NCBI GenBank assembly: GCA_029264035.1
Contig: JARICS010000070.1
Location: forward strand, 1 to 37,027
Direction of reading: 5' to 3'
Length of the DNA: 37,027 nt
DNA from: Dysgonamonadaceae bacterium
GTDB taxonomy: Bacteria; Bacteroidota; Bacteroidia; Bacteroidales; Dysgonomonadaceae
Each line of letters starts with the position of its first letter. Position 1 is the first letter of the stretch. The position numbers and the translations under genes are program-made. The notes below the pieces were generated by a model. That model did no database searches, was not told the DNA's origin, and saw nothing but the letters and a program-made list of their open reading frames with translations. This document shows, piece by piece, positions 94 through 36,919 of this stretch.

Positions 94-136
94 AAAGAGT
101 CATTTTACGTATAATCGTAAAATGACTCTTTTCATT
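94..136 (+). terminator. Rho-independent terminator-like hairpin after the OmpA-like gene
   Basis: AAAGAGTCATTTTACG (94-109), loop TATAAT, CGTAAAATGACTCTTT (116-131): 16-bp perfect stem followed by a T-rich tract. Confidence 0.85.
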
Positions 137-235
137 TTAATGCTTTTAGTTTTCACTATTGCCATGTTAATAAAGTGTTTTTTTGTAGGTTTGATTTAAG
201 ATCAAATAGACTTGGTGTATTTTCACGTAAATTAT

Positions 236-555
236 GAGATTTGCATCCACGACGGTGAAAATCTTTAAAAGAGATGAAACTTACATCTACGACGGGGAAA
301 ATGTTCTCCACCTCATTATTTTCTTTTTGTTGCCCTATTATGGGACATTTATGCTATAAAAACCCAGTTTGCAAAATAGAATTTTCATCAAATCTTCTGA
401 ATTTTCAATCTCGGGTTTATTTTTCTCTTTTCATGACATTTTTCTCCCAGTTTTGCCTAAAATAAAACTATTCTTACTTTATAAAACATTTCCACGACCG
501 TGGATTCAATTTTCATGACATGAACGTTCAATTGCAGACCGCTGATTTGATTTCC
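236..555. repeat. Intergenic element copy A: two direct units in the 5' arm (236-262, 273-307) and two inverted units in the 3' arm (481-519, 521-555)
   Basis: 5' unit GATGAAACTTACATCTACGACGGGGAAAATGTTCT resembles the reverse complement of the 3' arm (GTCATGAAAATTGAATCCACGGTCGTGGAAATGTTTTAT). A homologous element lies at 36437-36770. Confidence 0.7.
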
Positions 556-730
556 AACTCTTTTATGGATCATTTTCGTGTAAAATGAAATAAATGTGGG
601 TTTGTTTTTTGCAAATTGATAAAAGAGGGGCTACTGTGCTATGTCTAAAGAGTTCCTTTCAAGAATTCCTATACTGCGAACCCAATTATATATATGATAC
701 CAAGAAATATAGAGTTAATTATATTTTCTC

Positions 731-1798: not shown

Positions 1799-3322
1799 AT
1801 GAAAATACTAACCGCAAATGCTATTAGAGCTGTAGATGCTAAAACCATTGAATACAACGAAATCTTCTCACACGAACTGATGGAGATGGCTGCAAGAGCC
1901 TTCTTTTACCACTTTGCAAGCAAATACAGTTGTCATACAAACGTAGTAACCCTGTTTTGTGGAACAGGAAACAATGGCGGAGATGGCATTGCAGTAGCCC
2001 GTATGTTGCATACGGTTGGCTATTCTGTCAAGCTTTTTATTGTAGAGATAAGCAATAACTACTCTGACGATTGTGCTCTGAATATCGAGAGAGCCGAAAA
2101 AGCTGGTGTAGATATCACCACAATTACTTCCGTAGATCAGATTCCCTCACTGGATAATGTAAATGTGATTATCGATGCAATTTTAGGTACAGGACTGTCA
2201 CGTCCCTTAAATGGATTAGCAAAAGATGTACTTGAAATAATAAATAGAGCGCAAAAAATAGTTGTAAGCTTAGATATTCCCAGTGGACTGTTTATGGATA
2301 AACCTACCTCATTGGCTATTAATGCTACCGAAACTGTTACATTTCAGATACCAAAGTTAGCGCTTTTTCATCCACTCAATGATCAGTTTGTTGGTCTATT
2401 ATCTATTGTGGATATAGGTCTCGACTCAAAAGCTATTACTGAGGCAGATACAGATATGTATTACCTAACCGATGCTTCTATGGCAGACAAATTAGTGCCA
2501 TTGGCTAAATATTCTCACAAAGGTACACAAGGACATGCTTTAATTATTGGAGGAAGTATTGGCAAGATAGGTTCTATTACTTTGGCTTTGAAGGCTGCAT
2601 TGAAGAGTGGCTGTGGATTGGTTACAGCTTTAGTTCCCCAATGTGGTGTGAGTGTCATTCAAAGTTCCTTTCCTGAGGCAATGGTTGTGCAAGATAAAAA
2701 TCAAACTCATCTATCATCTATCTCTTATGATATTAATCCTTCGGCCATAGCAATTGGAATGGGCATGGGGCAACATAATGATACAAAGAAGGCTTTAGGT
2801 CTCTTTTTACAAAATACTTCTATTCCAATGGTTATAGATGCTGATGCTCTGAATATTTTGGCTGATAATTATGATTGGATAAGCTACTTGAAACCCAATA
2901 CTATACTCACTCCACATCCAGGAGAATTATCACGCCTAATTGGAAATTGGGATGATGACTTTCATAAAATAGCATTAACCCGTGAGTTTGCACGTAAATA
3001 CAATCTGATTGTTGTTATTAAAGGAGCGCACAGTTTAATTATAGATTCCAATAATTTATATGTAAACAGCAGTGGAACACCAGCCTTAGCAACTGCCGGT
3101 AGTGGCGATGTATTGTCGGGTATAATAGCGGGACTACTTGCGCAAGGATATGAGGCAATCATCGCAACGCAGTTGGGGATTTATATTCATGGCATGACAG
3201 CCAATATTACTTCAGACACAATTAATGCACGCTCTTTTATTGCATCCGATATTATAGACAACATTGGTAAAGTGTATGATAGAATGAATGTTGTGAAGAA
3301 TACTGATGATTTAGTTTTGTAA
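1799..3322 (+). CDS. nnr: Bifunctional NAD(P)H-hydrate repair enzyme (epimerase + ADP/ATP-dependent dehydratase)
   Basis: N-terminal FCGTGNNGGDGIAVARML (epimerase) and C-terminal GTPALATAGSGDVLSGIIAGLLAQG (dehydratase). Start 1799 (MKILTANAIRAVD) preferred over 1769. Confidence 0.92.
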   Translation: MKILTANAIRAVDAKTIEYNEIFSHELMEMAARAFFYHFASKYSCHTNVVTLFCGTGNNGGDGIAVARMLHTVGYSVKLFIVEISNNYSDDCALNIERAEKAGVDITTITSVDQIPSLDNVNVIIDAILGTGLSRPLNGLAKDVLEIINRAQKIVVSLDIPSGLFMDKPTSLAINATETVTFQIPKLALFHPLNDQFVGLLSIVDIGLDSKAITEADTDMYYLTDASMADKLVPLAKYSHKGTQGHALIIGGSIGKIGSITLALKAALKSGCGLVTALVPQCGVSVIQSSFPEAMVVQDKNQTHLSSISYDINPSAIAIGMGMGQHNDTKKALGLFLQNTSIPMVIDADALNILADNYDWISYLKPNTILTPHPGELSRLIGNWDDDFHKIALTREFARKYNLIVVIKGAHSLIIDSNNLYVNSSGTPALATAGSGDVLSGIIAGLLAQGYEAIIATQLGIYIHGMTANITSDTINARSFIASDIIDNIGKVYDRMNVVKNTDDLVL

Positions 3323-11819: not shown

Positions 11820-12662
11820 TTATATGATAGCCATTGAAACCTGTGTGTATATGTCTTCAATGTCTTCTCGCTCTATTCTATCAAAGTCTTCTTTGCGTGG
11901 AGTTATAAACATTCCGGCCATATCTAATGCACCTGGACTCACAAGCAGTTGATCTTTGCCTTGTGCTGAATATTGCCATGGGCGATGCAGTTTTCTAGGG
12001 AATACATGAATTACATACATTCCGTTTTCCATAAACGAAATAATATTCATCATGGGTTCATCTTCTTCAGGTTGATGCGTCTTCAAGTAGTTGAAAACAT
12101 CGTAAAATTGCTCTTCGGCTTCTACTTTTGTTTCGCATTCAATTCTAAGACAAGATCGAAGAGAGTTTTCGTTACTCAAAAGAACTTTGCTCTTCAGTCC
12201 AGCTTGAAAATGAAAATGATCGGGGGCTGAGGCTCCACACTTTGGGCCATTGTAAAACACAATGTAATCTGGCAACAGTTCGGTTAGTGATAGCATATCA
12301 ACTATTTTTTTGCCTATCAACTGAGGCACATGAGTGTGCAAAGGTATGGTCAAATGATTTTGCAAGATGGGAAAAGGGTTACACAAAATCATGTATTTAT
12401 CTAAGAACGATATCCCTTTCTGTACATCAGGTCTGTTTTCGGCACATAAAAAGCATTTACGCTCTTCAATGCTTTTTTTATCTATCTTGGCCGATGCTGA
12501 AATGAGACGAGATGGATTGTATTGCAAAATCACCTCTACATCACTTCCCCAATTGATTGACCTTTCTACGATATTACTCATTTGCTTGCAATTGTCGTCA
12601 AGCAATTTCCACTCTTCTCGTTGTGTTGAAAAGAGTTCTTTTATTTCTTTCTGAAGATTCAT
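11820..12662 (-). CDS. DUF4922-type protein (GalT/HIT-like fold)
   Basis: ERKCFLCAENRP CxxC motif and CGASAPDHFHFQAG HIT-like HxHxQ motif; start 12662 (MNLQKEIKELF) fits the TACCTTTG element at 12684-12691. Confidence 0.75.
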   Translation of the reverse strand: MNLQKEIKELFSTQREEWKLLDDNCKQMSNIVERSINWGSDVEVILQYNPSRLISASAKIDKKSIEERKCFLCAENRPDVQKGISFLDKYMILCNPFPILQNHLTIPLHTHVPQLIGKKIVDMLSLTELLPDYIVFYNGPKCGASAPDHFHFQAGLKSKVLLSNENSLRSCLRIECETKVEAEEQFYDVFNYLKTHQPEEDEPMMNIISFMENGMYVIHVFPRKLHRPWQYSAQGKDQLLVSPGALDMAGMFITPRKEDFDRIEREDIEDIYTQVSMAII

Positions 12663-12683
12663 TTTTTGCATTTTTCTTATTAA

Positions 12684-12691
12684 CAAAGGTA
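12684..12691 (-). promoter_or_regulatory. Minus-strand -7 element TACCTTTG for the DUF4922-serB-USP-TPR operon
   Basis: Reverse complement of CAAAGGTA, ~22 bp upstream of start 12662. Confidence 0.5.
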
Positions 12692-12866
12692 TGAATAATT
12701 TCTTTTATTGCACCGAAATCGAGTAAAAAAGACAGTTTATGTAACATTTAGCTGAATTTCAGATGCTTTTGTCTGTTTTATGCTATTATTTTCATATTTT
12801 TGTACCCGGTAACTCAAAGTTAACTAAGGCAGTTAGGCAAAAGAGATATCGATTAAAACATAAAAG

Positions 12867-13338: not shown

Positions 13339-13821
13339 TTAAACTAAAGCTGTTTTAGTAAAGCTCAAAGGCATTAGGCTACTCATGCTTTCTGCAACGT
13401 ATACTTCATCTTTTTTGTTGTATAACAATATCTTCACTGACGAATTGTAACGACTCTCTACCTCAAGAAGTACTTGGCGGCAGCTGCCACAAGGTGAAAT
13501 GAGATCATTTGTAAACTCTCCATTATAAAAAGCAGCTACAGCCAGAGCTTCAATTTTTTGATCGGGATATTGAGCATTGGCATAAAAAACAGCTGTACGT
13601 TCAGCACACAATCCTGAGGGGTATGCAGCATTCTCTTGATTGTTGCCAGTTATTATTTTCCCATTTTCTAAAAGGAGTGCTGCACCAACATGAAAATGAG
13701 AATAAGGGGCATATGCATTGGAAGTAGCAAGTTTTGCAGCATCAATTAGCTTTTTTTCTATCTCTGTGCATTCTTCGTAACTATAAACGGTTATCTTTGT
13801 AGTTAAATTAATTTCTTTCAT
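13339..13821 (-). CDS. cdd: Cytidine deaminase
   Basis: NAYAPYSHFHVGAALL…NAAYPSGLCAERTA…SPCGSCRQVL zinc motifs. Confidence 0.95.
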   Translation of the reverse strand: MKEINLTTKITVYSYEECTEIEKKLIDAAKLATSNAYAPYSHFHVGAALLLENGKIITGNNQENAAYPSGLCAERTAVFYANAQYPDQKIEALAVAAFYNGEFTNDLISPCGSCRQVLLEVESRYNSSVKILLYNKKDEVYVAESMSSLMPLSFTKTALV

Positions 13822-13869
13822 AAAGACTATTTTATTATTTTAGATAGTTCAAAAATACACATTTTTAGA

Positions 13870-14796
13870 ATGGCTTTCACACTAAATAGATATAAATCAC
13901 TTTTAAAGCTGCTGTTTGTACTATTATTTGCGTTTACATGCACTTTTCAGGCAGTTTCTCAAAAAAGATATAAGCTATACGAAGACTATATAGATAAATA
14001 TAGCCCCATAGCAGTTAGTCATATGCAGAAACATAAAATACCAGCATCCATAACATTGGCTCAAGGCTTATTGGAATCGGGTGCGGGGCAGAGTCAACTT
14101 ACAAAAAAGTCAAATAATCATTTTGGTATTAAGTGTCATCGCGACTGGAAGGGTGGACGAGTATTTGCTAAAGATGATACTCCAAATGATTGTTTTAGAC
14201 AATACCGTAGAGCTGAGGAATCTTTTGAAGATCACTCTCAGTTTTTGGTGCAAGGTGCAAGGTATCGACCTCTATTTACACTCTCTCCAACCGATTATAA
14301 AGGATGGGCTCGAGGATTGCAAAAATCGGGATATGCTACTGATAAAGCTTATGCAAACAAACTAATAAAACTGATTGAAGACTATGAACTTTATCGATTT
14401 GATAAAAAAAATTATAGAGGGTCAAGTATTCAAGAAGCTTCAGCTCCTCAAAATTGGTCGCATCAGCCTTTCAAAACACATGGGCTAGTCTATGTGTTGG
14501 CAATACAAGGAGATACATACGAAAGTATAGCGGCCGAATTTAACTTCAAAACCGAAGACTTGTTGAAATACAACGAAGTACCAAAAGGTTTTCCTTTGAA
14601 TGCCAAAGATATTGTCTATTTTCAAAAAAAGAAATCGCGAGCCGACAAACCTTACTTTGAACATATTGTTCAAATAGGTGAGTCAATGCACGGTATCTCT
14701 CAGAAATATGGCATGAAGGTGAAGAACCTATATAAAATGAATAAAAAAGATTACGAATACGTGCCCGAAGAAGGCGACGTGTTAAAACTAAGATAA
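13870..14796 (+). CDS. Glucosaminidase-domain peptidoglycan hydrolase with C-terminal LysM repeats
   Basis: SITLAQGLLESGAGQSQL…NNHFGIKCH; two LysM-like segments (VLAIQGDTYESIAAEFNFKTEDLLKYN; HIVQIGESMHGISQKYGMKVKNLYKMN). Confidence 0.92.
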   Translation: MAFTLNRYKSLLKLLFVLLFAFTCTFQAVSQKRYKLYEDYIDKYSPIAVSHMQKHKIPASITLAQGLLESGAGQSQLTKKSNNHFGIKCHRDWKGGRVFAKDDTPNDCFRQYRRAEESFEDHSQFLVQGARYRPLFTLSPTDYKGWARGLQKSGYATDKAYANKLIKLIEDYELYRFDKKNYRGSSIQEASAPQNWSHQPFKTHGLVYVLAIQGDTYESIAAEFNFKTEDLLKYNEVPKGFPLNAKDIVYFQKKKSRADKPYFEHIVQIGESMHGISQKYGMKVKNLYKMNKKDYEYVPEEGDVLKLR

Positions 14797-36304: not shown

Positions 36305-36436
36305 AGTTTAAAACTCGACGTTTATTTGACAAAAAGCCTTGTTTTCCTGAGGTGGTTTAGGTATTGTTGCGTGTTTTGCATTTTGATATATCTTTTTCAA
36401 AACATTTTACAGAAGTACAAAATGTTTTAATCTGTT

Positions 36437-36770
36437 GAAACTTGCAATCCACGACGTAGAAAATGATTTAAACTGTTGAAACTTCCCTCCTCGACGGGGG
36501 AAATGTTTCTCAACACATTATCTTTGTTTTGTAGCCCTCATTTACACCATTTCTGTCTTTAAAATCTATTTCCCTGTTTAGGGGTTGTCTATTCAACAGT
36601 TGATTCTTCAATCTTATTCCGTTGTTCTTATTTTTAAGGCATCTTTCCTCCCATCTTAGCTAAAAAATGCTCCACTTTAGCGATTCAAAACATTTCTATG
36701 ATCGCAGATTCAATTTTCATGGCATAAACGTGTAATCCACAACCGTGGATTTGAGTTCAAACTAATTTCC
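36437..36770. repeat. Intergenic element copy B, homologous to 236-555
   Basis: Units GAAACTTGCAATCCACGACGTAGAAAAT (36437-36464) and TGAAACTTCCCTCCTCGACGGGGGAAATGTTT (~36477-36508); inverted units 36687-36722 and 36725-36770. Confidence 0.7.
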
Positions 36771-36919
36771 GCAAAAATGAATTTACTTCGTTACTTTTCA
36801 CTCAAAGCTTCTTTTACTATCTTTGTACCATCATAAAACAACGTTTACAATCCAATAAAATCAAACATCCGCCAATGATCAGGATGTAACAAAATAGAAA
36901 ACAGAAAACAGAATCGAAG

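What the first reader, a model, noticed from the sequence alone, without database searches (positions are those of the whole stretch)
236..555. Intergenic element with paired inverted arms (copy A), part of a dispersed family
The gap between the OmpA-like terminator and msrC holds two direct units (core CATCYACGACGGKGAAAAT) and, ~175 nt later, two inverted units (CCACGACCGTGGATTCAATTTTCAT, then a degenerate one). 5' unit GATGAAACTTACATCTACGACGGGGAAAATGTTCT matches the reverse complement of the 3' arm closely. The layout is forward-forward-centre-inverted-inverted, with homology to 36437-36770. No plausible ORF explains it; ORF 274-465 is just an open frame through it. It could be a MITE-like or REP-like non-autonomous repeat or a large structured RNA.
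Basis: seen in the sequence. Interest (0 to 1): 0.62.

Follow-up and report, generated by a model that had tools for sequence, protein, structure and literature searches.

The report
Mobile repeat carrying 41-bp palindrome array
The odd gap before msrC holds a worn copy of a small non-coding jumping DNA element, present at 42 or more places in this bacterium's genome, whose core is an evenly spaced array of palindromes, one every 41 bases (four turns of the double helix), which looks like a docking strip for an unknown DNA-binding protein.

Summary
Window 236-555 is the interior of a dispersed non-coding family with at least 42 places in this 66%-complete Dysgonomonadaceae (Bacteroidales) genome. 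The two window copies span about 190-631 and 36321-36774.

Complete members are 947-951 bp. They have terminal inverted repeats (GGATCACNTGCAAAAGTATG) and 8-bp target duplications (8/8, 7/8, 7/8 and 6/8 matches). The same termini bound intact ISAon1-type (ISL3-family) insertion sequences in other Bacteroidales. The family is therefore a large MITE, very probably moved in trans by an ISAon1-type transposase.

The unexpected part is the core: a register of 41-bp units with palindrome centres 41, 82, 123, 205 or 246 bp apart. AA/TT/AT steps are phased at 10.25 bp. Indels are rarer than in the outer arms. Three congeners use different palindromes (CCACGGCCGTGG, CTACCGCGGTAG, CTTACGCGTAAG) in the same register. 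I infer a helically phased array for a species-specific dimeric DNA-binding protein; the protein is unidentified. The plasmid centromere sopC (12 x 43 bp, inverted repeats) is the nearest architectural analogue, not a shown relative.

The parts
190..631 (+). copy A: family-homologous stretch, an end-truncated member of the 0.95-kb element
   Evidence: profile match 143-584 of 707 at 190-631, E 3.5e-104 (copy A is among the sequences the profile was built from); no terminal inverted repeat found (best 10-11 mismatches of 22)
242..263 (+). 41-bp-register palindromic unit 1 (CATCCACGACGGTGAAAAT)
   Evidence: PWM scan, centre 252
282..303 (+). unit 2, 40 bp from unit 1
   Evidence: PWM scan, centre 292
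304..486 (+). central part: degenerate units in the same 41-bp register, helically phased AA/TT/AT
   Evidence: unit 2 to unit 3 = 205 bp = 5 x 41; self-identity at multiples of 41 bp and AA/TT/AT power 13.2 on copy A, 0/500 shuffles each
487..508 (-). unit 3 (CATTTCCACGACCGTGGATTCA)
   Evidence: PWM scan, centre 497
528..549 (-). unit 4, 41 bp from unit 3
   Evidence: PWM scan, centre 538
36321..36774 (+). copy B: second member of the family
   Evidence: two profile matches, 36321-36472 and 36449-36774 (L042); 67% identity to copy A
36444..36465 (+). copy B unit 1
   Evidence: PWM scan; next unit 40 bp on
36484..36505 (+). copy B unit 2
   Evidence: PWM scan; next unit 207 bp on
36691..36712 (-). 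copy B unit 3
   Evidence: PWM scan; next unit 41 bp on
36732..36753 (-). copy B unit 4
   Evidence: PWM scan

Best explanation
Copy A is a worn member of a dispersed non-autonomous transposon family: a large MITE, complete length about 0.95 kb. Shown: inverted terminal repeats, 8-bp target duplications, insertion sites not shared between species, and ISAon1-type (ISL3-family) insertion sequences with the same termini. Inferred: an ISAon1-type transposase acting in trans cuts at these termini and pastes the element into intergenic DNA. Its cargo is a core of about 370-400 bp made of 41-bp units, each four helical turns long, many with a palindrome at the centre. All sites therefore face one side of the DNA and the A/T steps are phased at 10.25 bp. 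Inferred, not shown: the core is kept in register because a dimeric, sequence-specific DNA-binding protein, differing in specificity between species, binds the palindromes side by side and bends or wraps the DNA into one nucleoprotein complex.
For: Copy number: at least 42 places. Termini and duplications: inverted repeats of 23+ bp; AAGACTTT/AAGACTTT (L020), CTTTTATT/CTTTTACT (L019), ATTATGTG/ATTATATG (L023, right terminus degenerate), TCAAGCTC/TCATGTTC (C8). TIR pattern: 19 hits in this genome, 0 for the reversed control pattern. Autonomous relatives: L101 (1439 bp) and L108 (1433 bp) carry ISAon1-type ORFs between these termini; the homologous L076 ORF scores E 1.3e-37 to NF049916. Mobility: one flanking gene shared among 17 G002 copies, with the element in opposite orientation; orthologous genes in G001-G003 at tested loci have no element beside them. 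Core: 148 of 154 adjacent palindrome spacings lie within 2 bp of a multiple of 41. 10.25-bp periodicity of conservation in two species, 0/1000 surrogates each in band. AA/TT/AT phasing median 13.3 against a flank 99th percentile of 7.1. Substitution:indel ratio 46-98 in core windows, 13-20 in left arm, 29-35 in right arm. Copies keep more phasing than random placement of their own substitutions, 12.0 against 7.9 +/- 0.6, 0/300. G001's own family has a different palindrome but centres at 20.5, 266.5, 307.5, 348.5 and phasing power 19.9 at 10.25.
Against: No ISAon1 transposase was found in this genome or G002, and only a contig-truncated one in G001. Copies A and B have lost their termini. G001 copies share the core but show no ISAon1 termini, so another vehicle or recombination is needed there. 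The periodicity of conservation disappears when W/S trinucleotide context is controlled (684/2000), so it is not independent of A/T phasing. No binding protein is known; a single ParB occurs in every genome tested, including G003 where no array was detected. Copy B shows the A/T phasing only weakly (39/500 shuffles as high). Spacing counts include copies related by descent.
Confidence: 0.66

Rival explanations
1. A plain MITE whose interior descends from an ancient 41-bp tandem repeat. The register is a fossil of how the core was built by unit duplication, with no present function.
For: MITEs with internal tandem repeats are known in Bacteroidales: BrickBuilt 23 nt and PgRS/464 with 41-nt repeats in Porphyromonas gingivalis (PMC4596501). 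Self-identity peaks at multiples of 41. Conservation periodicity is explained by base context.
Against: Central units have lost almost all sequence similarity yet keep register; indels are rarer in the core than in the outer arms; A/T phasing exceeds neutral placement, 0/300; palindromes change between species while spacing stays.
Confidence: 0.24
2. A dispersed structured RNA (riboswitch-like or small RNA) encoded by the core.
For: Two palindromes show modest covariation: score 0.223 against 0.156 shuffled, 0/500. The 491-504 hairpin looks terminator-like on both strands.
Against: RNAalifold predicts 3 pairs in 415 columns; folding z-scores -0.88 and -0.81; no Rfam match at gathering score in the region; 10.25-bp DNA periodicity; many copies have mismatched stems.
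Confidence: 0.03
3. A REP/BIME-type element: clustered extragenic palindromes mobilised by a RAYT tyrosine transposase.
For: Intergenic palindromes at regular spacing; one Y1_Tnp homologue in this genome.
Against: No unpaired GTAG/CGTC foot (GTRG lies inside the palindrome); full copies have DDE-type termini and 8-bp duplications; G077 carries a copy but has no Y1_Tnp match.
Confidence: 0.03

Closest known systems
ISAon1-type insertion sequences (ISL3 family)
   Same: Terminal inverted repeat GGATCA/GGCTCA...GCAAAAGTATGTGT; 8-bp target duplications in the MITE match what is established for ISL3 elements (own knowledge).
   Different: The IS are about 1.43 kb and carry the transposase; this element has none and carries the 41-bp array instead.
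BrickBuilt and PgRS/464 MITEs of Porphyromonas gingivalis (PMC4596501)
   Same: Intergenic non-autonomous elements of the same order with internal repeats; PgRS repeats are also 41 nt.
   Different: Their termini are IS5-type (GAGAC...TGCA); BrickBuilt repeats are 23 nt. PgRS sequences could not be compared here.
F-plasmid centromere sopC/parS-F (PMC6238139)
   Same: Twelve 43-bp tandem repeats, with inverted repeats inside that bind a dimeric protein: same architecture and nearly the same period.
   Different: A single plasmid locus next to its sopAB genes; here tens of chromosomal copies, no linked gene found, no sequence relation tested.
REP/BIME elements (PMC3733652, PMC2817692)
   Same: Multicopy extragenic palindromes at regular spacing.
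   Different: REPs are 20-40 bp with an unpaired GTAG/CGTC foot and RAYT partners; these are about 0.95 kb with ISAon1-type termini.

Membership tests
MITE (non-autonomous DNA transposon) | terminal inverted repeats | tested here: met
   met in complete copies (L019, L020, C8); not found in window copies A and B, which are truncated
MITE (non-autonomous DNA transposon) | target-site duplication | tested here: met
   8/8, 7/8, 7/8 and 6/8 in four copies
MITE (non-autonomous DNA transposon) | no transposase encoded | tested here: met
   stops in all six frames of all 28 aligned cores
MITE (non-autonomous DNA transposon) | short, usually under about 600 bp | tested here: not met
   complete copies are 947-951 bp, so it is a long MITE or a non-autonomous derivative
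ISL3/ISAon1-derived element | same termini as an autonomous ISAon1 element | tested here: met
   L101, L108 and L076
ISL3/ISAon1-derived element | transposase present in the same genome | tested here: not met
   no NF049917 match in the 66%-complete assembly; absence is weak evidence
REP/BIME | unpaired GTAG or CGTC foot beside a short hairpin | tested here: not met
   unit consensus CAAATCCACGGCCGTGGATTTG is symmetric
BrickBuilt/PgRS | IS5-type terminus GAGACCTTTGCA or GAGACTGTTGCA | tested here: not met
   terminus is GGATCACATGCAAAAGTATG
Rfam RNA family | covariance-model match at gathering score | tested here: not met
   none in the region
ParB/sopC-type centromere | tandem units of about 41-43 bp with inverted repeats | tested here: met
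   (geometry only)
ParB/sopC-type centromere | cognate centromere-binding protein | tested here: inconclusive
   one ParB_N protein in every genome, including G003 without detected arrays
ParB/sopC-type centromere | binds protein and acts in segregation | not testable with these tools
   needs binding and localisation experiments

The most novel reading that the evidence does not exclude
Tens of mobile, centromere-like arrays dispersed through a bacterial chromosome: each is a phased strip of palindromes, one per 41 bp, that loads a dedicated, fast-evolving DNA-binding protein to bend, bridge or organise the chromosome. Transposons spread the strips; the geometry is invariant while the recognition sequence changes from species to species together with the protein.
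Probability: 0.15. Interest if true: 0.85.

Novelty: new variant of a known kind. Interest (0 to 1): 0.62.

Why it matters
Non-coding bacterial repeats are usually treated as decaying clutter. Here a transposon-borne repeat keeps a geometry (41 bp, 10.25 bp per turn) better than its sequence, in three congeners whose palindromes differ. If a protein binds it, this is a directly testable case of a mobile element spreading architectural DNA sites, and of a changing binding specificity with a fixed nucleoprotein layout.

Tried and rejected
RNA reading: Rfam search, RNAalifold and single-strand folding; only modest covariation in two palindromes. Coding: stops in all frames. REP/RAYT. A Noc/ParB paralogue tracking the arrays: no, one ParB per genome. 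Plasmid or phage origin: no match in the plasmid and phage collections and none in viral contigs. Wider spread: only short matches of about 25-50 bp outside the family in 393 genomes of the order; one good copy in another genus, G077. Conservation periodicity as stand-alone evidence of selection: dropped after the trinucleotide-context control. Avoidance of divergent gene pairs: suggestive (1 of 34 gaps against 3 of 20 controls) but not significant, p = 0.14. Literature: no paper in the held library contains ISAon1; the papers combining ISL3, Bacteroid- and miniature inverted-repeat were listed but not read.

Full report
OBSERVATION. Copy A has two forward units, a centre and two inverted units, and is homologous to copy B (67% over 332 bp, E 3e-15). 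Used as a query it finds 40 places in its own assembly (1.62 Mb, 145 contigs, 66% complete). That list does not include copy B or the intact copy at C8:4508-5455, so there are at least 42. Paralogues are typically 66-73% identical to copy A and nearly co-linear with it.

ORGANISM. 

ENDS AND MOBILITY. Extending the alignment shows that 236-555 is only the interior. A subfamily (L018, L019, L020, L023, L034 and C8) has sharp ends. The left end is GGATCACATGCAAAAGTATGTGTATG and the right end its inverted partner ...GCATACTTTTGCAGGTGATCC, 947-951 bp apart in L019, L020 and C8. Target duplications of 8 bp flank them: AAGACTTT/AAGACTTT (L020), CTTTTATT/CTTTTACT (L019), ATTATGTG/ATTATATG (L023) and TCAAGCTC/TCATGTTC (C8, 6/8). 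Older copies and G002 copies keep decayed termini (L015, L056, L060, L065). The terminus pattern occurs 19 times in this genome and never in the reversed control. In named Bacteroidales genomes the same terminus bounds complete IS of 1439 and 1433 bp that contain ISAon1-type transposase ORFs (L101, L108). In G001 it lies just upstream of ORFs that match NF049916 (E 1.3e-37) and NF049917. A second, about 310-bp element shares the termini (L087, L094, L079).

Comparing G000 with G002 (same genus), only one flanking gene is shared next to a copy, with the element in the opposite orientation. Where orthologues of flanking genes could be found in G001-G003, no element lies beside them. The element has therefore moved since these species parted. 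Shown: termini, duplications, lineage-specific positions and IS with the same termini. Inferred: ISAon1-type transposase acts in trans. It was not found in this incomplete assembly.

THE CORE. Among 28 copies, 2083 substitutions but only 13 indels separate the core (about 360 columns) from its consensus. A profile-based count that includes more copies gives 46-98 substitutions per indel in core windows, against 13-20 in the left arm and 29-35 in the right arm. The core is not coding and not a folded RNA. Information content per column is periodic at 10.25 bp in G000 and independently in G002 (0/1000 autoregressive surrogates in band for each; 20 and 58/1000 if any period is allowed). AA/TT/AT steps are phased at the same period: median power 13.3 in copies, against 2.9 (99th percentile 7.1) in flanks. 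Substitutions respect this phasing more than random placement would, 0/300. Caveat: the conservation periodicity is no longer significant when trinucleotide context is controlled (684/2000), so the two signals are not independent.

A palindrome PWM finds 216 sites in the elements and 5 in twice as much flank; 148 of 154 adjacent spacings are within 2 bp of a multiple of 41. Much of this reflects shared descent, but length changes also come as whole units: G002 copies carry an extra 41-bp unit on the right (consensus). The most telling replicate is G001. Its own family, barely detectable with the G000 profile, has a different palindrome, CATTTCTTACGCGTAAGAAATG. Yet its 366-bp core has centres at 20.5, 266.5, 307.5 and 348.5, self-identity 0.413 at multiples of 41 (shuffles 0.268 +/- 0.013, 0/500) and phasing power 19.9 at 10.25 bp. 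Copy A of the window passes both tests on its own (0/500 each); copy B is weaker (15 and 39 of 500).

G001 copies share the core, but their outer arms fall into unrelated classes and no ISAon1 terminus was found. The core thus seems able to sit in different vehicles, or to be exchanged by recombination.

MECHANISM. Units of 41 bp equal four turns at 10.25 bp per turn, so all palindromes lie on one face. Palindrome sequences differ between species but agree among units within a species, while spacing is fixed. The simplest reading is a cooperative array for a dimeric sequence-specific protein that bends or wraps the core. The protein is unknown. ParB-like paralogues do not track the arrays. sopC, with twelve 43-bp repeats and inverted repeats that bind ParB-F (PMC6238139), shows that such an architecture can work, but no relationship is claimed.

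PLACE AMONG KNOWN THINGS. By vehicle it is a long MITE of ISAon1/ISL3 type. By content it is unlike REP elements and differs at its termini from BrickBuilt and PgRS. The shared 41-nt period with PgRS (PMC4596501) is a lead I could not test. Outside this genus one good copy was found, in G077 of the same family; the remaining matches in the order are short.

Noticed in passing
L087 1501-1811, L094 760-1068 (G000), L079 1501-1802 (G001): A second, about 310-bp MITE with the same ISAon1-type termini; L094 has duplication ACTCTATA/ACTCCATA.
   Followed up: partly
L096 1501-1808 (G000:C63): A longer variant: ISAon1-type terminus followed by about 180 bp of other sequence before the 0.95-kb family's left arm; cut by the contig end.
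   Followed up: no
L101 907-2345: A complete ISAon1-type IS on a contig binned as Lachnospiraceae; transfer between phyla or a binning error.
   Followed up: no
L144 about 2733-3230 (G077): Single family copy in a complete genome of another genus, next to IS21-like ORFs, with a perfect hairpin AAAATCCAATTCTCGATTGAGAATTGGATTTT inside.
   Followed up: partly
L004 flanks (G000:C18): Genes on both sides of this copy end in a similar stretch (AAGCAACAAGGATTGCTTAAAT), as if the element split or bridges a duplicated gene end.
   Followed up: no
window 100-125: Terminator-like hairpin just upstream of copy A (10 pairs, T-rich tail).
   Followed up: no
window 12451-12850 and 13601-14000: AA/TT/AT phasing near 10-10.5 bp also rises here, overlapping ORFs; possibly coiled-coil coding sequence.
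   Followed up: no
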